From Parcubacteria group bacterium GW2011_GWA2_40_23 (lineage in GTDB: Bacteria; Patescibacteriota; Patescibacteriia; UBA11705; JABHMO01): a DNA stretch of 35,103 bases. The translations under genes were made by a program, and so were the position numbers. The notes below the pieces were generated by a model. The model was not told where the DNA came from and did not search any database. It saw only the letters and a list, made by a program, of their open reading frames with translations. Shown one piece after another: positions 7,408 to 18,213 of this stretch (within the stretch, counting starts at the first letter, position 1; every line of letters begins with the position of its first letter). Location of the stretch: assembly GCA_000996245.1 (NCBI GenBank), contig LBYP01000019.1, forward strand, positions 1 through 35,103, read 5' to 3'.

Positions 7408-8190
7408 ATGCAAAACTGGGGAAAAGATAAAAAATACTTCTTCTTAGATGAGTCCGGCGATCCTATTTTTTTTGACAATTCCGGAAGGTGCATCGTTGGT
7501 GAAGAAGGTTGCTCAAAAATATTATTGATAGGATTTATCATGACCGACAAGCCAGTCCACATGCGAAAAGAGATATTAAAACTGCGCAAGGAAATCATGA
7601 ACGATCCATACTTAAAAGAGGTGCCGTCTTTGAAACACACTATAAAATACTTTCATGCAAGCGTGGACACCCCAGAGGTAAGAGAAAAATTTTTTAAGAT
7701 GATTCAAAATTTTGATTTCAAGGCAGAGTTTATCGTCGCAAGAAAACTGATTAGTGTTTTCAGGAAAAGACATAGATCAAATCCTAATGTCTTTTATGAT
7801 GATATCGTGGCTAAATTATTTGAAAATAAATTGCATTTAGCGCAGGAAAGTCATATATATTATGAAGTGAGAGGGAGTAGGAGTAGACAACAACCTTTTG
7901 AAGATGCAATCAGGACCGCTATAAGTGTCTTTGAGTTGAAGTGGGGGCGAAAAAATGATTTGGAGATTAAAATCTACCCGATGTCATCTGTCGGTGAGCC
8001 TTGTTTACAGATAATTGATTACATGAATTGGGCAGTACAAAGAGCATTTATTCAGGGAGATCTGCGTTATATTCATTTTCTTGAAAGCAAAATTAGTTTT
8101 ATTTTTGATATTTATGATTTAAAGAAGTATCCTTACAATTATTATTCGAAAAGAAATAAATTTGATCTAAATAAAATAAACCCCTTATAG
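7408..8190 (+). CDS. DUF3800 family protein
   Basis: The 260-residue protein begins with KKYFFLDESGDP, the hallmark acidic start of DUF3800, and ends with a conserved LQIIDYMNWAVQR block. These conserved acidic residues suggest a metal-dependent, RNase H-like fold, although activity has not been established as far as I know. DUF3800 genes are often found in defence islands and on mobile elements, which fits the R-M locus downstream. It has its own promoter and is followed by a long structured noncoding stretch rather than an ordinary terminator. Confidence 0.8.
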   Translation: MQNWGKDKKYFFLDESGDPIFFDNSGRCIVGEEGCSKILLIGFIMTDKPVHMRKEILKLRKEIMNDPYLKEVPSLKHTIKYFHASVDTPEVREKFFKMIQNFDFKAEFIVARKLISVFRKRHRSNPNVFYDDIVAKLFENKLHLAQESHIYYEVRGSRSRQQPFEDAIRTAISVFELKWGRKNDLEIKIYPMSSVGEPCLQIIDYMNWAVQRAFIQGDLRYIHFLESKISFIFDIYDLKKYPYNYYSKRNKFDLNKINPL

Positions 8191-8194
8191 CTAG

Positions 8195-8440
8195 GCTGGT
8201 TTCCCAGCGCACGGCATGTAGCCGACTTTCGCATATAAGAGACTTATAATTGGTGCTTTTGTCAATTTAATTATTAATGAAGTAGCGTCTTATGGAGCGT
8301 TTCTTCCCGATTTTATAACTAATTTTCTAGTTATGCCTCTGACCTTCAGAGGGAACATCGGGGCGCCACATAAGTTGTTATTGCATACTTCTAAATTAAA
8401 TGTAGCACAGGTTTAATAACGGATCAAATTTTGATGCAAT
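8195..8440 (+). ncRNA. Candidate structured RNA with a three-way junction
   Basis: There is no gene in 8191-8545. The sequence holds hairpins GCTGG-TTTC-CCAGC (8195-8208), CGGC-ATGTA-GCCG (8212-8224) and TATAAG-AGA-CTTATA (8234-8248). A nested junction follows: CTTATG (8289-8294) with CATAAG (8369-8374), GCG with CGC, CCCGAT (8306-8311) with ATCGGG (8357-8362). These enclose two perfect 7-bp hairpins, ATAACTA/TAGTTAT (8315-8334) and CCTCTGA/TCAGAGG (8336-8352). ATTGCAT (8380-8386) can pair with ATGCAAT (8434-8440). I recognise no known RNA family. It could be a 3' UTR of DUF3800, an hsdM leader or an independent RNA; a TATAAT at 8245-8250 has only a poor -35. Confidence 0.55.
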
Positions 8441-8545: not shown

Positions 8546-10123
8546 ATGACCGACGAACAAAAAAAGATATTAGAACGACAATTATGGGGAGTGGCGAATA
8601 CTCTTCGGGGTAAAATGAATGCCGATGAATATAAAAATTATATTCTCGGTTTTATTTTTTATAAGTACCTTTCCGAAAAATTGGAACGTTATGCCAATGA
8701 AAAACTTTTAGTTCAAGAAAAGATTGCTTTTGCTAATATAAAAGAAAATACAAAGGATGGAAAAGCAATCTTGGAAGAAGTTAAAAAAGCCTGTGTTGGT
8801 CATCTGGGATTTTTCTTAAAACCAACAGAATTATTTTCTTATATTGTGAATAAGGGAAAAGGTGACATTAAAGATCAAAATAAATTTATTCTTGAAGATC
8901 TTAAGAATATTCTTAATAATATTGAGAAGACCTCGGCGGGAACTGAGAGCGAAGATGATTTTAAAGATCTTTTTTATGATGTTGACCTCACTTCATCTAA
9001 ACTAGGCTCTCGTGAAAACGATAAGAACGAGGTCGTTGTAGAAGTTCTTTCACTCTTAAGTGGTATAGACTTTAAACTTGAAGATGCGAAGAGTGATTTG
9101 CTCGGTGATGCTTATGAATATTTAATTGGCGAATTTGCTGCTGGTGCTGGCAAAAAGGGTGGAGAATTTTACACCCCAGCGCAAGTATCAAGATTGTTAG
9201 CGCAAATTGTGACGCAGGATAAAAAGCGTGTGAAATCAGTTTATGATCCAACTTGCGGTTCTGGTTCACTTCTTCTTAGAATTGGAGACTACACGGAAGT
9301 TATAAATTATTTCGGCCAAGAACTTAATCCAACTACGTACAATCTGGCGCGCATGAACATGATTTTGCATGGTGTACATTTTGATCATTTTAAAATACTT
9401 CAAGGTGATACCTTAAAAGAAGATATGCACGTTGATTTAAAAGCAGAAGCCATCGTTGCGAATCCTCCGTTTTCTGCTCAATGGAAAGGTGATTCAGATC
9501 TTGTTTTGGCACACGATGATCGTTTCTCTCAATATGGTAGATTGGCGCCCAAAAGCGCAGCTGATTATGCTTTTGTGACGCACATGATTTATCATTTGGC
9601 TGATAATGGAACAATGGCGGTTGTGTTGCCTCATGGAGCATTGTTTAGATCTGGTGCTGAAGGACAAATTAGAAAATATATTATCGAAAAACAAAATTAT
9701 CTTGATGCGGTCATCGGTTTACCAGCAAATCTTTTTTACGGAACTTCTATACCTGCAACTGTGCTTGTATTTAAAAAGTGCAGAAAATTCGATGAAGACA
9801 TATTTTTTATTGATGCGTCAAAGGGTTTTGAAAAAGTTGGGAATCAAAATAGATTGACGGATGAAAATATTGCGAAGATCTTTGAAACTTATAAAGAGCG
9901 GAAAGAAATCGAGAAATATTCTCATTGCGCGGACTTGGATGAGATCAAAGAAAATGAATACAACCTTAATATCCCACGTTATGTCGATACCTTTGAGGAC
10001 GAAGAATTGGTTGATATTGATACGGTAGCCAAAGAGTTAAAAAAGCTAAACGCAGAAGAAATTGATTTGCAGAAAAACATTGCTAAGTTTTGTGATGAAT
10101 TAAAGATTGATAAACCGTTTTAA
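8546..10123 (+). CDS. hsdM: Type I restriction-modification DNA methyltransferase (M subunit)
   Basis: The 525-residue protein carries the HsdM N-terminal helical domain (LERQLWGVANTLRGKM, YILGFIFYKYLSEKLE). The N6-adenine methyltransferase domain follows, with motif I VYDPTCGSGSLLLRIG (about 231-246) and motif IV AIVANPPFSAQW (about 303-314). The GEFYTP block before motif I is also typical. It methylates adenine within the site chosen by HsdS, and forms M2S or R2M2S complexes. Length and motifs are complete, so it should be active. Since hsdR is broken, it may now be a modification-only enzyme. Confidence 0.95.
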   Translation: MTDEQKKILERQLWGVANTLRGKMNADEYKNYILGFIFYKYLSEKLERYANEKLLVQEKIAFANIKENTKDGKAILEEVKKACVGHLGFFLKPTELFSYIVNKGKGDIKDQNKFILEDLKNILNNIEKTSAGTESEDDFKDLFYDVDLTSSKLGSRENDKNEVVVEVLSLLSGIDFKLEDAKSDLLGDAYEYLIGEFAAGAGKKGGEFYTPAQVSRLLAQIVTQDKKRVKSVYDPTCGSGSLLLRIGDYTEVINYFGQELNPTTYNLARMNMILHGVHFDHFKILQGDTLKEDMHVDLKAEAIVANPPFSAQWKGDSDLVLAHDDRFSQYGRLAPKSAADYAFVTHMIYHLADNGTMAVVLPHGALFRSGAEGQIRKYIIEKQNYLDAVIGLPANLFYGTSIPATVLVFKKCRKFDEDIFFIDASKGFEKVGNQNRLTDENIAKIFETYKERKEIEKYSHCADLDEIKENEYNLNIPRYVDTFEDEELVDIDTVAKELKKLNAEEIDLQKNIAKFCDELKIDKPF

Positions 10124-10124
10124 T

Positions 10125-10625
10125 ATGGATGACAAACAGATAAATTACGCTTTCATAGATCGTCAAAACCTTAATTTGGGAATTAAGAGCCTTGGTTGGA
10201 ATTTGGATTATAAAAGGTTTAGAATATATCTTCATGATAAATATAACGTAGCTGTGGCTTATTTGTTTATTGGATATATGCCAGAAAATCAGGATTTGTA
10301 TTCGGCGCTTCAGGCGTATGGTTATGTTTTGATATTTAAACCAACTTTGCCCGATCAAAATGGTGCTGTAAAGGGAAATGTTGATGCGGATTTGGTTTTG
10401 CAGGTTATGTTGGATTACGAAAAATATAATAAAGCAATAATCGTTACAAGTGATGGTGATTTTTATTCGTTGGTTAAATATTTATATAAGCAGAACAAAT
10501 TGGGCTTTGTGATGAGTCCGTATGTCAAAACCTGTTCGGTTCTGCTCAAAAAGACAGCAAAGGAAAAGATTATTTTTATGGATAATTTAAAATTGAAATT
10601 AGAATATAAACAAAAATACCGCTAA
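10125..10625 (+). CDS. NYN-domain (LabA/DUF88-type) putative ribonuclease
   Basis: The 166-residue protein starts at ATG 10125, one base after the hsdM stop. An upstream TTG at 10107 overlaps hsdM and is less likely. YAFIDRQNLNLGI near the N-terminus, KGNVDADLVLQVMLD in the middle and IIVTSDGDFYSLV give the acidic residues of the PIN-like NYN fold. NYN proteins are often metal-dependent RNases. Its tight link to hsdM and the terminator right after it suggest that it is carried as a cargo gene of the R-M operon. Its function there is unknown. Confidence 0.8.
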   Translation: MDDKQINYAFIDRQNLNLGIKSLGWNLDYKRFRIYLHDKYNVAVAYLFIGYMPENQDLYSALQAYGYVLIFKPTLPDQNGAVKGNVDADLVLQVMLDYEKYNKAIIVTSDGDFYSLVKYLYKQNKLGFVMSPYVKTCSVLLKKTAKEKIIFMDNLKLKLEYKQKYR

Positions 10626-10651: not shown

Positions 10652-10755
10652 AATATGTATTCTATATAAAGAATAGCATATATATACAATTTGTCAACTT
10701 ATCCACAGTAAACATTTCATTTAAATTTAGAGAAAAAAGAAAATTATTGCGAAAT

Positions 10756-12012
10756 ATGTCCCAAAATAAGGTAAAATTTAAAACTAAAAATATCCCGAGA
10801 TTACGTTTTTCGGAGTTTGTTGGTGCTTGGGAAGAAAAAAGGCTAGGCGAACTTAGTCGTATTTATGATGGTACTCACCAAACTCCCAATTATGTTAAAG
10901 AAGGTATCCCTTTTTATAGCGTTGAACATGTTACAGCAAATGATTTTTCTACTACAAAACATGTGTCCAACGAAGTTTTTGAAAAAGAGAATAAAAAGGT
11001 CAGGCTTGAAAGAAATGATATTTTAATGACACGTATTGGCGATATCGGTACGGCACGACTTATCGATTGGGATGTCCAGGCTTCGTATTACGTTAGTCTG
11101 GCGTTGATAAAACATTCTGAAAAGATAAATTCACATTTTTTGTCACAATACATAAATTCTGTTGGGTTTCAAAAAGAATTGTGGAAACGAACGATTCATG
11201 TTGCTTTTCCCAAAAAAATAAATCTTGGTGAGATAAGTGAGTGCAAACTTTCAGTTTCATCCCTCCCCGAGCAACAAAAAATTTCCACCTTCCTAGGAGC
11301 CGTTGATGACTGGATTGGAAATTTGCGTTTGCAAAAGAAAAATTTGGAAGTTTATAAAAAGGGCATGATGCAGAAGATTTTTTTGCAGGAGGTGCGGTTT
11401 AAGGATGATAAGGGAAAAGAGTTTGCGAAATGGGAGGAGAAGAAGTTGGGAGCGGTTGGAAAAATATATAATGGTCTTTCAGGAAAAACAGGGGAGGATT
11501 TTGGACAAGGAGATCCCTATATTGCATATAAGCAAATTTTTGATAGTAGCAAGATTGATGTTAGTAAATTCGCATTGGTAGAAATTAAAAAAGATGAAAA
11601 ACAAAACCGTGCACAATTTGGAGATATTTTTTTTACGACTTCATCAGAAACCCCGCATGAAGTTGGATTTGCATCTGTTTTACTTAATAAAGACGTAGAT
11701 CCTTATCTAAACAGTTTTTCTTTTGGGCTTCGGGCAAATTCTCTTAAAGAATTGGATCCTTATTTTGCAAGGTTCCTATTTAGAAGTTCTATCTACCGGA
11801 AACAAGTTATAAAATTAGCTCAAGGAAGTACGCGTTATAATATTTCCAAGGTTGAATTTTCAAAAATAAAACTTTTGTTCCCTTTTTTTCCCGAACAGCA
11901 GAAAATTGCAGAGTTTTTGACCTCACTCAATAGTTTAATAGAATCAAAACAACAACAAATCACTCAAGCCGAAACTTGGAAGAAGGGTTTGATGCAGGGG
12001 TTATTTGTATAG
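10756..12012 (+). CDS. hsdS: Type I restriction-modification specificity subunit
   Basis: The 418-residue protein has the two-fold HsdS plan. Target-recognition domain 1 starts with RLRFSEFVGAWEEKRLGEL. A first conserved spacer contains LPEQQKISTFLGAVDDWI and KKGMMQKIF. Domain 2 starts near WEEKKLGAVGKIYNGLSG. The final spacer contains FPEQQKIAEFLTSLNSLI and KKGLMQGLF. The two domains read the two halves of a split DNA target. ATG 10756 was chosen over the TTG at 10747. The reading frame is intact. The target site cannot be predicted by eye. Confidence 0.93.
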   Translation: MSQNKVKFKTKNIPRLRFSEFVGAWEEKRLGELSRIYDGTHQTPNYVKEGIPFYSVEHVTANDFSTTKHVSNEVFEKENKKVRLERNDILMTRIGDIGTARLIDWDVQASYYVSLALIKHSEKINSHFLSQYINSVGFQKELWKRTIHVAFPKKINLGEISECKLSVSSLPEQQKISTFLGAVDDWIGNLRLQKKNLEVYKKGMMQKIFLQEVRFKDDKGKEFAKWEEKKLGAVGKIYNGLSGKTGEDFGQGDPYIAYKQIFDSSKIDVSKFALVEIKKDEKQNRAQFGDIFFTTSSETPHEVGFASVLLNKDVDPYLNSFSFGLRANSLKELDPYFARFLFRSSIYRKQVIKLAQGSTRYNISKVEFSKIKLLFPFFPEQQKIAEFLTSLNSLIESKQQQITQAETWKKGLMQGLFV

Positions 12013-12300
12013 TGGTTTTTTGAAAAGCTAAATTTGTTATTGCAGAAAAGGGGATTCTGTGTTAAAATTGAATCACTAACTTTTAAGAGGCAAACATTAC
12101 TTTTGTAATGGGTGGTTACAACAGCTTGCAATAGCCATTCGATTTAGATGAGTTGGTTGAATTGTTTCTGCAAACTTGCAATAATTTAGCGAGTTCGTGA
12201 ACTAGTCTAGCGAAAGCTACGACCAAGAAGACAATTAGCATATAATAGGCACTTAATTTAATCATTAAGATTTGATTTAACACTGTCTTTATTATATATA
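12013..12300 (+). other. Noncoding stretch between hsdS and the RT RNA
   Basis: No credible gene is present. It holds a perfect CATTAC-TTTT-GTAATG hairpin (12095-12110), a direct repeat CTTGCAATA (12125-12133 and 12175-12183, 50 nt apart), and a GNRA-capped hairpin TAGC-GAAA-GCTA (12108 + 100, i.e. 12208-12219) preceded by AGTT-CGTG-AACT (12192-12203). The CTTGCAA element recurs in the RT RNA, where it closes a stem, so this stretch may belong to a longer RNA or be an older copy of part of it. Confidence 0.4.
12272..12300 (+). promoter_or_regulatory. Promoter of the RT-associated RNA
   Basis: TTGATT (12272-12277), a 17-nt spacer and TATATA (12295-12300). The predicted start, near 12307, falls at the 5' edge of the structured RNA and about 118 nt before the RT start codon. 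Confidence 0.6.
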
Positions 12301-12306
12301 CGTCAC

Positions 12307-12424
12307 GGTAAGACCCTAGTCCATTTGGACAGGACACGACTGCAAGCGAACCGAAAGGTTTTAGAACCTCTCCTCAGATCGAGCTATGTCTACGGCTTGC
12401 AAGGAGGGGTTTTTGCGTTTTTTT
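12307..12424 (+). ncRNA. Candidate RT-associated structured RNA
   Basis: The region folds compactly. CCT-a-GTCC pairs with GGAC-AGG around ATTT (12315-12333). TGCAAGC (12341-12347) pairs with GCTTGCA (12395-12401). Between them AACC-GAAA-GGTT (12349-12360) is a GNRA-capped hairpin. AACCTCTCC (12365-12373) pairs with GGAGGGGTT (12403-12411). The last two long pairings interleave, giving a pseudoknot or two alternative folds. TTTTTGCGTTTTTTT follows, so the second stem is also a terminator. The RT ATG at 12425 comes directly after. Some defence RTs (DRT2, DRT9) use an upstream RNA as template; a similar role here is an inference. Confidence 0.6.
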
Positions 12425-13744
12425 ATGAGCTTTATTCAATGGAAGGAACAACTAAAAGAAGAGAAAAAAGTAAAGAAATATCAACATTTAGATAGGTCTA
12501 TAAATTTAGATTTGAAAAATGATTTTCAAGAAGTTGTTGATGCAATAAAAAATATAACTAATCATTCATTTCTCCCGTTTATTAAAAGAATTAGCAGAAA
12601 AACAAGATTTAAACACAGAACAAATAAGCTTCCAGTTCGAACTTTGAAATTAAGACCCATTATGTATGCATCACATTTAGATTCTCATGTGTACAGTTAT
12701 TTTAATTATTGTTTATCACTGGAATATGAAAAGAAGCTAAAAGAATGTGAGTTGTCTAATGTCGTCTTAGCTTATCGTTCGATAAAAATACCTGAAAGTA
12801 GTGAGGGGAAGTGTAATATACATTTTGCGTCAGAAGTATTTAATTACATCTCCAATAGGGGGATGTGTGTCGTAATTACTCAAGATATTAAGGGATTTTT
12901 TGATGAAATTTCTCATAAATTTTTGTTTCAAGGTATAAAGGAACTATACGAAGGGGGTTGGATTGATTCTAGTCTTGTCAAGGTCCTTCATTCATTAACC
13001 GCATTCAAGTATATAAATTATGATGATTTCAGAAAGAACCATTTGAAACAATTGATAGAATCTAAAAAAGAAATTCCAATTTATAAATTAATTAAACAAT
13101 ATGTACATAAAAACAAATCTTCAAAAGGAATCCCTCAGGGAAGTCCTCTAAGTGGTTTATTGGCAAATATATACATGTTAAGTTTTGATATGGAGATTAG
13201 AAGGGAATTTCCTGCTGTCTTTTATCGAAGGTATAGCGACGACCTAATATTTATATGTGATGAAGAACTTAAGGATAACTTACTGGCTTCCATAGAAGAG
13301 AAAATATCACACAGGGATTTATCAATCCAACCAACAAAAACATTTATAGCAAAATTTGGATATGCTAATAGTATGCTAAAATGTGTTCAAGTGTCAGATG
13401 GTAATGGTGTGAAAAATAATCGGGATTATATCGACTTTTTAGGGTTTGAATATAATGGTCAGACTACACATTTCCGAAAAAACACGTACCAAAAGTTACT
13501 TAAAAAATCAGTAATTAACAGAATAAGTCGAAAGAAGAATTCAACAAAGTTAATCAAAAGGATAAAACCGAAAAAAGATACGTTAAAACATCGAAATCGT
13601 TCAAATTACTTAATGAAAGCCATTGAAGTCACGAAAAGTGATGGCATGAGAATACAGTTAAATAAATTCAATAGAAAAGTAAAAGAAAAATTTAAAAAGT
13701 CTTTATGCCACATCAATCCGAACAACAACTTGAAAAAACTCTAA
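12425..13744 (+). CDS. Reverse transcriptase, unknown-group/DRT-like
   Basis: The 439-residue protein has the full RT core. LRPIMYASHLDSHVYSYF resembles the first motifs of unknown-group RTs. ITQDIKGFFDEISH is motif A, KGIPQGSPLSGLLANIYM motif B, and FYRRYSDDLIFIC the catalytic YSDD. DFLGFEYNG follows as the last conserved block. The C-terminal ~100 residues are very basic and may bind RNA. QGSPLS argues against a diversity-generating retroelement, and there is no maturase or endonuclease domain. ATG 12425 is preferred because the upstream ATG at 12386 lies inside the RNA structure. Its end overlaps hsdR by 40 nt, so it is fixed in the operon. A phage-defence role is likely but unproven. Confidence 0.85.
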   Translation: MSFIQWKEQLKEEKKVKKYQHLDRSINLDLKNDFQEVVDAIKNITNHSFLPFIKRISRKTRFKHRTNKLPVRTLKLRPIMYASHLDSHVYSYFNYCLSLEYEKKLKECELSNVVLAYRSIKIPESSEGKCNIHFASEVFNYISNRGMCVVITQDIKGFFDEISHKFLFQGIKELYEGGWIDSSLVKVLHSLTAFKYINYDDFRKNHLKQLIESKKEIPIYKLIKQYVHKNKSSKGIPQGSPLSGLLANIYMLSFDMEIRREFPAVFYRRYSDDLIFICDEELKDNLLASIEEKISHRDLSIQPTKTFIAKFGYANSMLKCVQVSDGNGVKNNRDYIDFLGFEYNGQTTHFRKNTYQKLLKKSVINRISRKKNSTKLIKRIKPKKDTLKHRNRSNYLMKAIEVTKSDGMRIQLNKFNRKVKEKFKKSLCHINPNNNLKKL

Positions 13745-16381
13745 TAGAACAGTTAAATCGATTGGGATTTGCTTCAGTTATCTTAGAAAACCCTGATACG
13801 CTTGTTTTTAATTTGCGTAAACAATTAGAGAAATTTAATAATAGAAAATTTTCTGATACAGAATTCTCTCAAATCTTTAATCATCTCAATAAAGGCGAAC
13901 GTTTTTATAAGGCAAAAACATTGAGAGATCATTTTGCCATCTCTAATGACGATGACACTGTCTCATTTATTCAGTTTTTTAACATGGATCAATGGTGCAA
14001 AAACGAATATCAGGTTACACATCAGATCACCCAAGCCGGTCGTTACGAGAATCGTTATGATGTGACTTTGCTCATTAATGGTTTGCCACTAGTACATATA
14101 GAACTAAAACGTCGCGGAGTGGAAATGAAGGAAGCTTTTAATCAGATCCAACGTTATCATAAGCATTCATTCACCGGAACATTGTTTGAATACGTCCAAA
14201 TTTTTGTTATTTCTAATGGCGTTAATACTAAATATTTTTCCAATAATCCCAAACAATCATTCGAGCAAACTTTTTATTGGACAGATGAGCAAAATAATAA
14301 AATCACACAACTCGATAAATTTGCCGATGCCTTTTTGGGGAAGTGTACAGTCTCAGAAATGATTGCCGAACATATTGTATTAGCTGAATCTTTGCAAATA
14401 CCAATGACATTGCGCCCCTATCAATATTATGCAGTAAAAGCGATCGAAAAGCGTGTGCGTGAATCCAATAAAAACGGTTATATTTGGCATACTACTGGCT
14501 CAGGCAAGACCTTAACTTCATATAAGGCTAGTCAAATACTTTCACGAATGCCGGAAGTTAAAAAAGTATTGTTTGTTGTTGACAGAAAGGATCTGGATAT
14601 CCAGACAACTAAAGAATTCAATTCATTTTCCGACGGATCAGTCGATGGGACTGATAATACTCGTAATTTAGTTAAACAATTAAAAGATAAAAATCGTAAA
14701 ATTTGGGCAAACACATGCTCGCATTAAATCATTTTTTAAGAAAGCTCAACTTTTCGGATTCACGGGAACACCTATCTTTGCTGATAATAATGTTGGAGGA
14801 GTAACAACAGCCGATGTATTTGGAGAATGTTTGCATAAATATATCATTACTCATGCCATATCTGACGATAATGTCCTAGGTTTTGCTGTTGAATACGTCG
14901 GTAAGTACAAACAAAAGGATTCTAATACTTTGGATGCGGATATATTTGCTGAAACTCTTGTCGAAGGGATAGACACGAAAGAAGTTCTTGAAAGTGCTGA
15001 TCGGCTCAATAAAATTACAGATTATGTCTTGGCTGATTGGAAGAGAAAAACAAAGAATGGCAAATTTAACGCTCTTTTTGCAGTTTCAAGCATTGAAGTT
15101 TTGAAAAAGTATTACACCCTATTCAAAAATAAAAAAGCGGAAAATTTTAAAATCGCCACTATTTTTACCTATCAAGCTAACGAGGATGATAGTTCTGATA
15201 TGCTTGATGTTGATGTCTTTGCTGGAGAAGGAACAGCAGGGAACAAACATTCTCGAGATTTCTTGGAAGAATGTATTAAGGATTATAACAAAACATATTC
15301 AACAAATTTTTCAACTGACCGATTTTACGACTATTATCGTGATTTGCAAAAACGAATAAAAAGCAAAGAAATCGATCTAACTTTGGTGGTGAACATGTTT
15401 TTGACCGGTTTTGATAGTCCTAGACTAAATACTTTGTATGTTGATAAGAATTTACGTTATCACGGACTGATTCAGGCGTATTCAAGAACTAATCGTTTGT
15501 TAGATTCAGATAAACCGCATGGGAACATTGTTTCATTCAGAAATTTAAAGTTAGCCACTGATAAAGCTTTAGCGTTGTTCGGAGATGAAAATGCTAAAGA
15601 AATTGTGTTTAAGAAACCTTACGAAGAACAAAAGAAGGACTTTGAAAATAAGCTAAAAGAATTGCGAGATAAAGTCCCAACCGTTGCTTCCGTCGATACG
15701 TTACAAGGTGAAGAAGAAAAAGCGATCTTTGTAAAGTCATTTCGTGATTTGTTACGCATTAAGTCATCTCTGGAAACATTCGCTGAATTTTCTTTTCAAA
15801 ATTTAGGTATCTCGGAGCAAGAATTTTATGATTATCAAAGCAAGTATTTGGATATTCATGAAGAACGAAAAGATAATGAGAGTGGTACAGAATCAATTCT
15901 TGATCAAATCGATTTTGAGATTGAATTGACTGTGCGCGATATTATAAATTTTGATTACATTATTCAGCTTATTGCTGGGTTGAAGAATATCAGTTCAAAG
16001 ACTGTTCGCGAAAAGAAGACAGAAGAAATTTTACGTTTATTTGACCGTGACGTTAAGCTGCGCAAGAAAAAAGAGCTAATTAAGAAATTTATTGAAGAAA
16101 ATCTGCCGAGAATTAATAAATCTGATGATGTTGAAAAAGCATTTGGTAAATTTTGGTCGGGTGAACGATCTAATGTTCTAAAAAATATAGCTAAATCAGA
16201 AAAGATTCCACTCGAAAAATTTGATCAGTTGATTGGAGATTATTTATACACGCAGAGACTGCCAAGTGGACAGGAAATTGTGGAATTACTTCCAGAGATA
16301 CCGCGAATTCTTGAACGACAGGGAATTATTGATCGAATTAAAAATGCAATTGAAAATGTGGTTGATTTATTTGAATGGTAA
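13705..16381 (+). pseudogene. hsdR: Type I restriction endonuclease R subunit, internal deletion and frameshift
   Basis: Frame 1 (13705-14727) encodes a normal HsdR start (MPHQSEQQLEKTLIEQL), the nuclease domain with D...IELK (RYDVTLLINGLPLVHIELKR) and Walker A HTTGSGKT. After LKDKNRKI it runs into a stop at 14725. Frame 2 resumes from about 14702 with FGQTHARIKSFFKKAQLFG, FTGTP, TGFDSP and QAYSRTNR, and continues to 16381. In intact relatives about 50 residues lie between these points, including the Walker B DECH motif. They are missing, and the frame is shifted. DNA translocation and cleavage should be lost. An assembly error in a single read path remains possible. Confidence 0.88.
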
Positions 16382-16399
16382 CGCAAATAATAAATATAT

Positions 16400-17152
16400 A
16401 TGTCGCAATACTACAAAGCTGTTCGCACTAAAAACCTTTTCGACCCCAAATCAAAAGATGCTTTTAAATTATCCCGTTCCAAAATAGATTTATTTCTAAA
16501 TTGCCCTCGCTGTTTTTATTTAGATAGAAAACTCGGCGTCGGCCGACCACCGGGCTTTCCCTTCAACCTAAACTCCGCTGTCGATAAACTCCTCAAAACC
16601 GAATTCGACATCCACCGCGCCAACAAAACCGCACACCCACTTATGAAAGCCTACAAAATTAACGCAGTACCATTTCAAGATCAAAGAATGGACGAGTGGC
16701 GTGATTCTTTACGTCGAGGCATTAGATTTTTACATAAGAAAACTAATTTTTTAGTTACCGGTGGCGTGGATGATGTTTGGGTTAATTCAAAAAAGGAACT
16801 GATCATCGTCGACTACAAAGCTACCAGTAAATCAGCAGAAGTTAATTTGGATGCTGAGTGGCAGATTGGTTATAAACGTCAAATGGAAATTTATCAGTGG
16901 CTCTTCCGTCAAAATGGATTTAAGGTTTCTAAAATCGGTTATTTTGTTTATTGTAATGGCAATTCCGATAAAGAAGCTTTTGATGCTAAACTTGAGTTTG
17001 ATATTAAAGTCATTCCTTATAAAGGTGATGATTCCTGGGTCGAAAATGCCATAATTAAAGCTCATAAATGCTTAAAAGGTAATAATCTACCTAAGGCGGG
17101 AAATGACTGCGATTATTGTAATTATGTGACGGCGGTGAACTTTAAATTATAA
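16400..17152 (+). CDS. PD-(D/E)XK nuclease of the RecB/Cas4-like kind
   Basis: The 250-residue protein has the RecB-type nuclease residues: GGVDDVW, LIIVDYKAT and QIGYKRQMEIYQWLF. Cysteines NCPRC near residue 34 and CDYCNY near the C-terminus could hold a metal or an Fe-S cluster as in Cas4. I associate this LSRSKIDLFLNCPRCFYLD type with CPR genomes, where it is widespread. That suggests a housekeeping or DNA-uptake/repair role rather than a tie to the R-M locus. It begins 18 nt after hsdR without a ribosome-binding site. Confidence 0.8.
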   Translation: MSQYYKAVRTKNLFDPKSKDAFKLSRSKIDLFLNCPRCFYLDRKLGVGRPPGFPFNLNSAVDKLLKTEFDIHRANKTAHPLMKAYKINAVPFQDQRMDEWRDSLRRGIRFLHKKTNFLVTGGVDDVWVNSKKELIIVDYKATSKSAEVNLDAEWQIGYKRQMEIYQWLFRQNGFKVSKIGYFVYCNGNSDKEAFDAKLEFDIKVIPYKGDDSWVENAIIKAHKCLKGNNLPKAGNDCDYCNYVTAVNFKL

Positions 17153-17238: not shown

Positions 17239-18213
17239 ATGAAAAACAAGAGTAAGCAATTAGTAGTATATCAAACATCTTCTGGTTCAATTGAGTTGCG
17301 CGGTGATTTTAAGGCTGAAACAATTTGGGCAACCCAGGCAGAGATCGCCACTATTTTTGGAGTTACCTCTCAAAACATTACGATGCACCTGAAAAATATT
17401 TATAAGCAAAAAGAGCTTGTAAAACGGGCAACTTGTAAGGAATCCTTACAAGTTCAAGATGAGGGTAATCGTAGGGTTGAACGACGAATTAAAGAATATA
17501 ATTTAGATGTTGTTATTGCTGTTGGTTATAGAATAAATTCAATTATCGGGACTCATTTCCGTCAATGGGCGACAAAGATTCTGCGTGAACATATTACAAA
17601 GGGATACACCATGCACCGCAGGCGTATTCTTCGTAATTACGACTCTTTTATGAAAGCAGTTGGCGATATTCAAGCACTTTTGCCTGAACAAGTGGCTTTT
17701 GATTCAAAACAAGCGTTGGAATTGGTTAAAGAGTTCGCCAGTACCTGGATATCACTTGATGCCTTTGATAAAGAGGTGCTCGCACCTATTGGCACAACAA
17801 GAAGATCTGTCAAACTAACTGGCGAAGAATTAGCCATCGTTATCGCTGATTTTCGTGCAGAAATGATTAGTAAAAAAGAAGTATCAGATATTTTTGCTCA
17901 AGAAAGACAGTGGGGAAGTATTGCTGGCATAGTTGGTAATGTAATGCAATCTTTTGGTGGGCGGGAATTGTATCAAAGCGTGGAAGAAAAGGCTGCACAT
18001 CTTTTGTATTTTATGGTCAAGAATCATCCGTTTGCGGATGGGAATAAGCGCGCCGGTGCTTTTTCATTTGTTTGGTTTTTACGCAAAGCACGCGCCAAAA
18101 AATCAAGCAATATTAATCCGTCGACACTGACGGCGCTCACCCTGCTTATTGCCGAAAGTGATCCGAAAAAGAAAAATCAGATGACTGCACTCGTTACACA
18201 GTTGCTAAAATAA
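17239..18213 (+). CDS. RhuM-family protein with a Fic/DOC domain
   Basis: The 324-residue protein has an N-terminal RhuM part (TIWATQAEIATIFGVTSQNI, YNLDVVIAVGYRINS, FRQWATKILREHI), which resembles phage antirepressor DNA-binding modules. The C-terminal half contains HPFADGNKRAGAF, a complete Fic motif (HxFxDGNKRxG). Fic enzymes transfer AMP or related groups to target proteins, and DOC toxins are relatives. No partner antitoxin is visible. Proteins like this are often found beside type I R-M genes. Its flanks suggest insertion at the start of the HAD gene. Confidence 0.88.
   Translation: MKNKSKQLVVYQTSSGSIELRGDFKAETIWATQAEIATIFGVTSQNITMHLKNIYKQKELVKRATCKESLQVQDEGNRRVERRIKEYNLDVVIAVGYRINSIIGTHFRQWATKILREHITKGYTMHRRRILRNYDSFMKAVGDIQALLPEQVAFDSKQALELVKEFASTWISLDAFDKEVLAPIGTTRRSVKLTGEELAIVIADFRAEMISKKEVSDIFAQERQWGSIAGIVGNVMQSFGGRELYQSVEEKAAHLLYFMVKNHPFADGNKRAGAFSFVWFLRKARAKKSSNINPSTLTALTLLIAESDPKKKNQMTALVTQLLK

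What the first reader, a model, noticed from the sequence alone, without database searches (positions are those of the whole stretch)
12272..13744. RNA-plus-reverse-transcriptase unit embedded in a type I R-M locus
Between hsdS and hsdR lie a promoter (TTGATT-N17-TATATA), a compact structured RNA of about 115 nt ending in a U tract, and an RT with YSDD and QGSPLS motifs. The RT stop overlaps hsdR by 40 nt, so the unit is a settled part of the operon. Known: DRT2 and DRT9 defence RTs copy an adjacent RNA. Inference: this is a related but possibly new RNA-templated defence unit linked with R-M.
Basis: partly seen in the sequence, partly recalled or inferred. Interest (0 to 1): 0.78.

Follow-up and report, generated by a model that had tools for sequence, protein, structure and literature searches.

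The report
Divergent DRT2 "endless gene" phage defence
A tiny bacterium carries, inside a DNA-cutting defence locus, a reverse transcriptase whose partner RNA seems built to be copied head to tail into a toxic gene that does not exist in the genome, a trick known from DRT2 systems but here with different joining signals.

Summary
The RT at 12425-13744 is a DRT2 (UG2) reverse transcriptase: PADLOC Drt2 337 bits against 83 for the best other group; fold match to the DRT2 cryo-EM structure at Z 32.8, next 23.8. The RNA runs from about 12074 to 12424; the proposed promoter (12272-12300) lies inside its template and the 115-nt structure is its 3' scaffold. Three homologous loci share the RNA with compensatory base changes. 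In all four the antisense of the template is one stop-free cyclic frame (138, 171, 144, 150 nt, all multiples of three). Head-to-tail joining puts -35 and -10 boxes exactly 17 nt apart and joins short repeats that change together (GTTGA, GTTAT, GTA; only GT in the window). This is the Neo logic of DRT2, without the ACA repeats of KpnDRT2-like systems. The neighbouring hsdR is broken. Verdict: a divergent DRT2 lineage, probably patescibacterial, with a different template-jump sequence: new variant of a known kind. Nothing was tested experimentally.

The parts
12040..12068 (+). putative promoter of the ncRNA-RT transcript: TTGCAG-N17-TAAAAT
   Evidence: sequence read; -10-like box at the homologous place in L077 and L080; not tested, inferred
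12074..12424 (+). DRT2 ncRNA, about 350 nt; both ends inferred
   Evidence: conserved in L076, L077, L080
12124..12130 (+). 5' strand of a long-range helix (GCTTGCA) with 12341-12347
   Evidence: 31 of 32 core cells pair in four sequences, one compensated pair; coordinates
12341..12347 (+). 3' strand of the long-range helix (TGCAAGC)
12164..12301 (-). predicted template on the + RNA, read antisense as the 138-nt (46-codon) neo repeat unit
   Evidence: open cyclic antisense frame, multiple of three, 17-nt junction promoter, homologous in four loci
12176..12181 (-). -35 box of the predicted neo promoter (TTGCAA)
12291..12296 (-). -10 box of the predicted neo promoter (TATAAT antisense)
12164..12169 (+). 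left jump sequence (GTTTCT; only GT is shared with the right one in the window)
   Evidence: GTTGA/GTTAT/GTA shared in L076/L077/L080
12302..12307 (+). right jump sequence (GTCACG)
12302..12424 (+).
   Evidence: covariation on A5
12308..12314 (+). 5' strand of the predicted pseudoknot (GTAAGAC), pairs with 12388-12393 with one bulged A
   Evidence: GCTGAC/GTCAGC in the three homologues, 22 of 24 cells paired as aligned; the bulged window pairing is read by eye
12388..12393 (+). 3' strand of the predicted pseudoknot (GTCTAC), in the loop of the terminal hairpin
12365..12411 (+). terminal hairpin of the scaffold, 5 of 10 pairs with compensatory change
   Evidence: helix 4; coordinates
12425..13744 (+). 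DRT2 reverse transcriptase, 439 aa, YSDD
8546..10123 (+). hsdM (setting)
10747..12012 (+). hsdS (setting)
13705..16381 (+). hsdR, broken: two frames (13705-14727, 14831-16381), DECH segment missing
   Evidence: compared by eye with L091 HsdR

Best explanation
This is a divergent DRT2 phage-defence system. Inferred mechanism, by analogy with Klebsiella DRT2: the RT binds the pseudoknotted 3' scaffold of its own upstream RNA; on infection it copies the template (12164-12301) repeatedly, jumping from the left to the right jump sequence at each round; the tandem cDNA joins a -35 box to a -10 box at 17 nt and so creates a promoter and an endless antisense frame; the resulting hydrophobic repeat protein (46 residues per repeat) stops the cell's growth and so the phage. 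Shown here by sequence: RT family and predicted fold, conserved RNA, covariation, repeat length, open frame, junction promoter geometry, and co-varying jump sequences in the homologues. Not shown: that RNA, cDNA or protein is made, toxicity, or defence.
For: RT family and fold; clade at 100% SH-aLRT inside DRT2. RNA: A2 alignment, 13 of 34 scaffold pairs changed on both sides, 0 of 500 shuffles as good. Units of 138, 171, 144, 150 nt, each with one open cyclic antisense frame at spacer 17 and none divisible by three at 15, 16, 18, 19. Best of 186,690 column/spacer combinations. Joint chance of open frames in shuffles 1.4e-5. The same kind of scan finds the known ACA design in 12 of 81 DRT2 loci against 0 of 81 and 1 of 79 controls.
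Against: The window's own two jump sequences share only GT; the blind scan does not pick this solution first in the window or L080. L080's -10 is TAAGAT (4 of 6). Only four clade members, related to each other. NCBIfam Drt2 cut-off not reached (277 of 390 bits). hsdR nearby is broken, so the locus could be decaying.
Confidence: 0.82

Rival explanations
1. DRT2-family RT that makes tandem cDNA, but the cDNA itself or something other than a Neo protein is the effector; the open antisense frame is a by-product.
For: Other DRTs act through DNA products (abstract starts seen). Neo was hard to annotate in divergent DRT2 clades, and its authors suggest other mechanisms there.
Against: Open frame, lengths divisible by three in all four and promoter boxes at 17 nt have no reason to be kept otherwise.
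Confidence: 0.09
2. The antisense frame is an ordinary small membrane-protein or toxin gene on the minus strand, and the RT uses the RNA in another way.
For: An antisense frame of 85 codons runs from 12373 to 12119 in the window; the peptides are hydrophobic.
Against: Frames run 74-99 codons with stops at differing places outside the template and no shared start or stop; jump sequences and the out-of-order promoter boxes are unexplained.
Confidence: 0.04
3. The system is a decaying, inactive relic: the RNA can no longer support jumping and the neighbouring hsdR is broken.
For: Two-nucleotide jump match in the window; hsdR in two frames.
Against: RT open over its whole length with catalytic motifs intact, scaffold pairs kept by compensatory change, template frame open and promoter 10 of 12. 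The hsdR break may be an assembly fault.
Confidence: 0.15
4. Retron, group II intron, DGR or DRT9 element instead of DRT2.
For: Weak generic RT similarity to group II, retron and DGR proteins.
Against: Family scores, structure and tree all point to DRT2; no Rfam match at the locus at gathering score.
Confidence: 0.01

Closest known systems
KpnDRT2 (Klebsiella pneumoniae DRT2; PMC12039810 parts 1-3 of 10 read, PMC11100668 part 2, section 10 and passages read)
   Same: RT family and predicted fold; ncRNA directly upstream with 5' part, template and pseudoknotted 3' scaffold; antisense endless frame; template a multiple of three; -35/-10 joined at 17 nt across the junction
   Different: No ACA repeats: jump sequence GTTGA/GTTAT/GTA, GT in the window, 12 nt from the -35 box (6 in the ACA loci); longer RNA (about 350 against 280 nt) and longer units (138-171 against 120 nt); YSDD for YCDD; RT only 27-28% identical in the structural alignments
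Other DRT2 RTs in patescibacterial or same-class genomes (L091 Nomurabacteria; L241, L242, L243)
   Same: DRT2 RT; L091 follows an hsdR gene
   Different: Fall elsewhere in the DRT2 tree; their repeat units were not resolved here
DRT9
   Same: Defence RT with its own ncRNA (listing); second-ranked DRT in Foldseek (E 1.2e-11)
   Different: Far lower family score (50 against 337 bits) and Z (18.9 against 32.8); its homopolymer product (title) has no counterpart in this RNA's design

Membership tests
DRT2 / UG2 (family level) | RT scores best with the Drt2 family | tested here: met
   PADLOC Drt2 337 bits, next non-Drt2 group 83; PDB Drt2 1.3e-36
DRT2 / UG2 (family level) | Fold of DRT2 RT, over fingers, palm and thumb | tested here: met
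   predicted model to 9c0i_A, Z 32.8, 386 residues aligned, next Z 23.8; the thumb was not compared separately
DRT2 / UG2 (family level) | Structured ncRNA directly upstream with pseudoknotted 3' scaffold | tested here: met
   covariation in four homologues
DRT2 / UG2 (family level) | Template length divisible by three with stop-free antisense frame across the repeat junction | tested here: met
   four of four loci
DRT2 / UG2 (family level) | -35 and -10 boxes brought to 17 nt by joining | tested here: met
   four of four, window 10 of 12 to consensus
DRT2 / UG2 (family level) | Matched short sequences at both template ends | tested here: inconclusive
   3-5 nt in three homologues, only 2 nt in the window
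DRT2 / UG2 (family level) | Tandem cDNA, Neo toxicity and phage defence | not testable with these tools
   needs experiments
KpnDRT2-like subgroup | ACA repeats flanking the template | tested here: not met
   best ACA solution has 8, 9, 7, 6 of 12 promoter matches in window, L076, L077, L080; the rule finds 12 of 81 DRT2 loci
KpnDRT2-like subgroup | NCBIfam Drt2 equivalog cut-off | tested here: not met
   277 bits, cut-off 390
DRT9 | RT belongs to the Drt9 family | tested here: not met
   50 bits against 337 for Drt2
Retron / group II intron / DGR RTs | RT scores best with these families | tested here: not met
   NCBIfam group II 85 bits (cut-off 300) and retron St85 43 (cut-off 235) against Drt2 277; structure ranks DRT2 first

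The most novel reading that the evidence does not exclude
The joining signal of DRT2 rolling-circle reverse transcription is not the ACA code but any short repeat kept identical at both template ends. This lineage, and several others in the scan with CAA, GCGTAA or TTGTTT, keep the endless-gene mechanism while changing the jump sequence and its place; this would explain why Neo was hard to annotate in divergent DRT2 clades, and would extend RNA-templated gene synthesis to ultrasmall bacteria.
Probability: 0.5. Interest if true: 0.65.

Novelty: new variant of a known kind. Interest (0 to 1): 0.58.

Why it matters
Published work found Neo genes readily near KpnDRT2 and left open whether divergent DRT2s work otherwise (section 10 of PMC11100668). 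This lineage keeps the elements of the Neo logic that sequence can show while replacing the jump sequence, so the rule can be restated as matched ends, a 17-nt junction promoter and a length divisible by three, and searched for throughout the family. It would also place RNA-templated gene synthesis in bacteria with genomes near 1 Mb. The paper searches listed no paper on DRT2 in Patescibacteria or the candidate phyla radiation; they cover open-licence full texts only.

Tried and rejected
A single-protein search of genome contigs found no relative; an alignment query found the clade. Rfam at a permissive threshold over 12000-12500 gave two hits far below their gathering scores. Phylum search with the Drt2 profile: 127 of 379 genomes match at E 1e-3, but apart from this genome the best is 63.5 bits, i.e. 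generic RT similarity. Class search with A3: 4 of 380 including this genome; order of G456: 1 of 148, itself. Viral scans gave no closer member. Rooting the tree failed: 7 outgroup loci were named, 5 dropped out of my filter, and the 2 kept did not group, so only the in-family clade is used. A repeat unit for L091 was looked for by scan and by eye and not settled; L241-L243 were only read. Another unit for the window with 3 nt of jump identity exists (117 nt, 16-nt spacer, TTCACG box, 10 of 12); I set it aside because it was not the clade-wide solution.

In some searches the 81 regions are 77 of the 80 genome-contig loci (L089, L127, L152 dropped: duplicate or too little upstream), 3 of the 79 viral loci, and the window; many are related, so counts are not independent. 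With the looser score (16 or more) the scan rang in 18 of 81 upstream regions but also in 9 of 79 far-upstream controls, so that score is weak evidence; I rely on the stricter promoter scans and the clade-wide ranking. The protein alignment for the structure used 36 sequences.

Full report
What is there. The window lies in a 1.22-Mb genome, 99.76% complete. hsdM (8546-10123), a NYN-domain gene (10107-10625) and hsdS (10747-12012) are followed by a gap of about 410 nt, the RT, and hsdR.

The RT. Homologue starts put its start at ATG 12425. PADLOC gives Drt2 337 and 227 bits, the next group 83. NCBIfam Drt2 gives 277 bits, under its cut-off of 390. The best PDB relatives by sequence are DRT2 chains at 1.3e-36. 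An AlphaFold model (pLDDT 88.9, pTM 0.87) matches the DRT2 cryo-EM chain 9c0i_A at Foldseek E 3.6e-29 and Z 32.8 over 386 residues; the next structure, a group II intron RT, has Z 23.8. In a tree of 50 DRT2 proteins plus 2 poor outgroups, the window groups with L076, L077 and L080 at 100% SH-aLRT on a long stem inside DRT2. Identity to L076 and L077 is 44 and 43%. Of 380 class genomes only this one and three others match at E 1e-25, and those three fall elsewhere in the DRT2 tree.

The RNA. Upstream regions of the four loci align from about 12030 to the RT start with 67% mean column identity. Shared are a leader that follows a -10-like box (clear in three of four), a stretch CTTGTATT (window CTTGCAAT) that pairs with AATACAAG (window ACTGCAAG) in the scaffold, a variable middle, and a scaffold that ends TTTGCGTT before the RT (TTTGCGTT read). 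In the 3' scaffold (A5) RNAalifold finds 28 pairs, 11 with compensatory change. With the pseudoknot added, 93.4% of 136 cells pair, 13 of 34 pairs change on both sides, 0 of 500 shuffles reach these two values, and sliding partners by 1-3 columns drops pairing to 34-56%. The number of further pair types is not unusual (58 of 500 shuffles as high). The alignment was not fitted to this structure, but the structure came from it. In the 8 core columns of the long-range helix 31 of 32 cells pair, and one pair is C-G in the window and U-A elsewhere.

The hidden gene. In KpnDRT2 the RT copies a 120-nt template again and again; the antisense of the joined copies is a stop-free frame (neo), and -35 and -10 boxes meet at 17 nt across the junction; ACA flanks the template (PMC12039810, parts 1-3 read; PMC11100668, part 2 and section 10 read). 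I asked the same of this clade. In all four the antisense of the middle is open in one homologous frame while its length varies in steps of three. Antisense -35 boxes (TTGCAA, TTGACT, TTGCAA, TTGACA in window, L076, L077, L080) and -10 boxes (TATAAT three times, TAAGAT in L080) lie at homologous places; at a 17-nt spacer the unit is 138, 171, 144 and 150 nt, all divisible by three, each with one open cyclic antisense frame, while at 15, 16, 18 and 19 it is not divisible by three in any. At that spacer the two ends share GTTGA, GTTAT and GTA in L076, L077 and L080, and only GT in the window. The ends therefore differ between loci but agree within three of the four. Scored for boxes plus end match, without regard to length or frame, this is first of 186,690 combinations of columns and spacers (56 against 50 for the next). 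Shuffled units keep an open cyclic frame in 72, 74, 102 and 408 of 2000. The peptides are hydrophobic; open frames from shuffles reach the observed value in 2 of 72, 1 of 75, 11 of 102 and 0 of 421, so L077 is not unusual by itself.

Controls. The ACA rule with a junction promoter of at least 10 of 12 finds 12 of 81 DRT2 upstream regions, 0 of 81 coding stretches and 1 of 79 stretches further upstream; it fails in all four members of this clade. A general matched-ends rule (3 nt or more, promoter 11 of 12, 17-nt spacer, multiple of three, open) finds 22 of 81, 0 of 81 and 2 of 79; besides ACA it shows CAA, CAG, GCAG, TTGTTT, GCGTAA, GTTGA and some others. These 81 include close relatives. A blind scan finds the same solution as best in L076 and L077, but not in L080 or the window.

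The R-M setting. hsdR is in two frames, 13705-14727 and 14831-16381, and against the HsdR of L091 the segment from the ITTIQKL to the DECHRSQF motifs is missing (comparison by eye). It may be an assembly fault. In relative L268 hsdS and hsdR abut without an RT (the HsdS name there is read by eye). L091, a Nomurabacteria contig, has its own DRT2 soon after an hsdR; L077's DRT2 follows a C5 methylase and a MutH-domain gene; L076's and L080's lie near serine recombinases and DNA methylases. So DRT2 recurs near modification genes, but a working link is not shown.

Verdict. A DRT2-family system that very probably works like KpnDRT2, outside the ACA-bearing subgroup. Weakest points: a two-nucleotide end match in the window, four sequences, no experiment. 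That it is unreported rests on the searches only; supplementary tables of the DRT2 papers, which may list these loci, were not read.

Noticed in passing
window 8278-8392 (-) and 7408-8190 (+): Rfam DUF3800-V RNA (51.8 bits) on the minus strand, just downstream of a DUF3800 gene on the plus strand and just upstream of hsdM.
   Followed up: no
window 10107-10625: A NYN-domain (LabA-like) gene lies between hsdM and hsdS, overlapping the end of hsdM.
   Followed up: no
window 16400-17152 and 17239-18213: A Cas4-like PD-(D/E)XK nuclease gene and a RhuM/Fic protein (PADLOC candidate PDC-S23) follow hsdR, so this may be a wider defence island.
   Followed up: no
L091:2080-2549: Nomurabacteria DRT2 soon after hsdR, with a 122-codon antisense frame over the presumed ncRNA; its repeat unit was not settled.
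   Followed up: partly
L142, L155, and Pseudomonas loci L086, L087, L098, L117, L126, L128: The matched-ends scan suggests other jump sequences in DRT2: TTGTTT, GCGTAA and CAA.
   Followed up: partly
L080:4584-4703: Rfam LOOT RNA (81.7 bits) downstream of the L080 DRT2 gene.
   Followed up: no
G000 contigs C4, C15, C18: Four further, distantly related RT genes in the same small genome, kind not determined.
   Followed up: no
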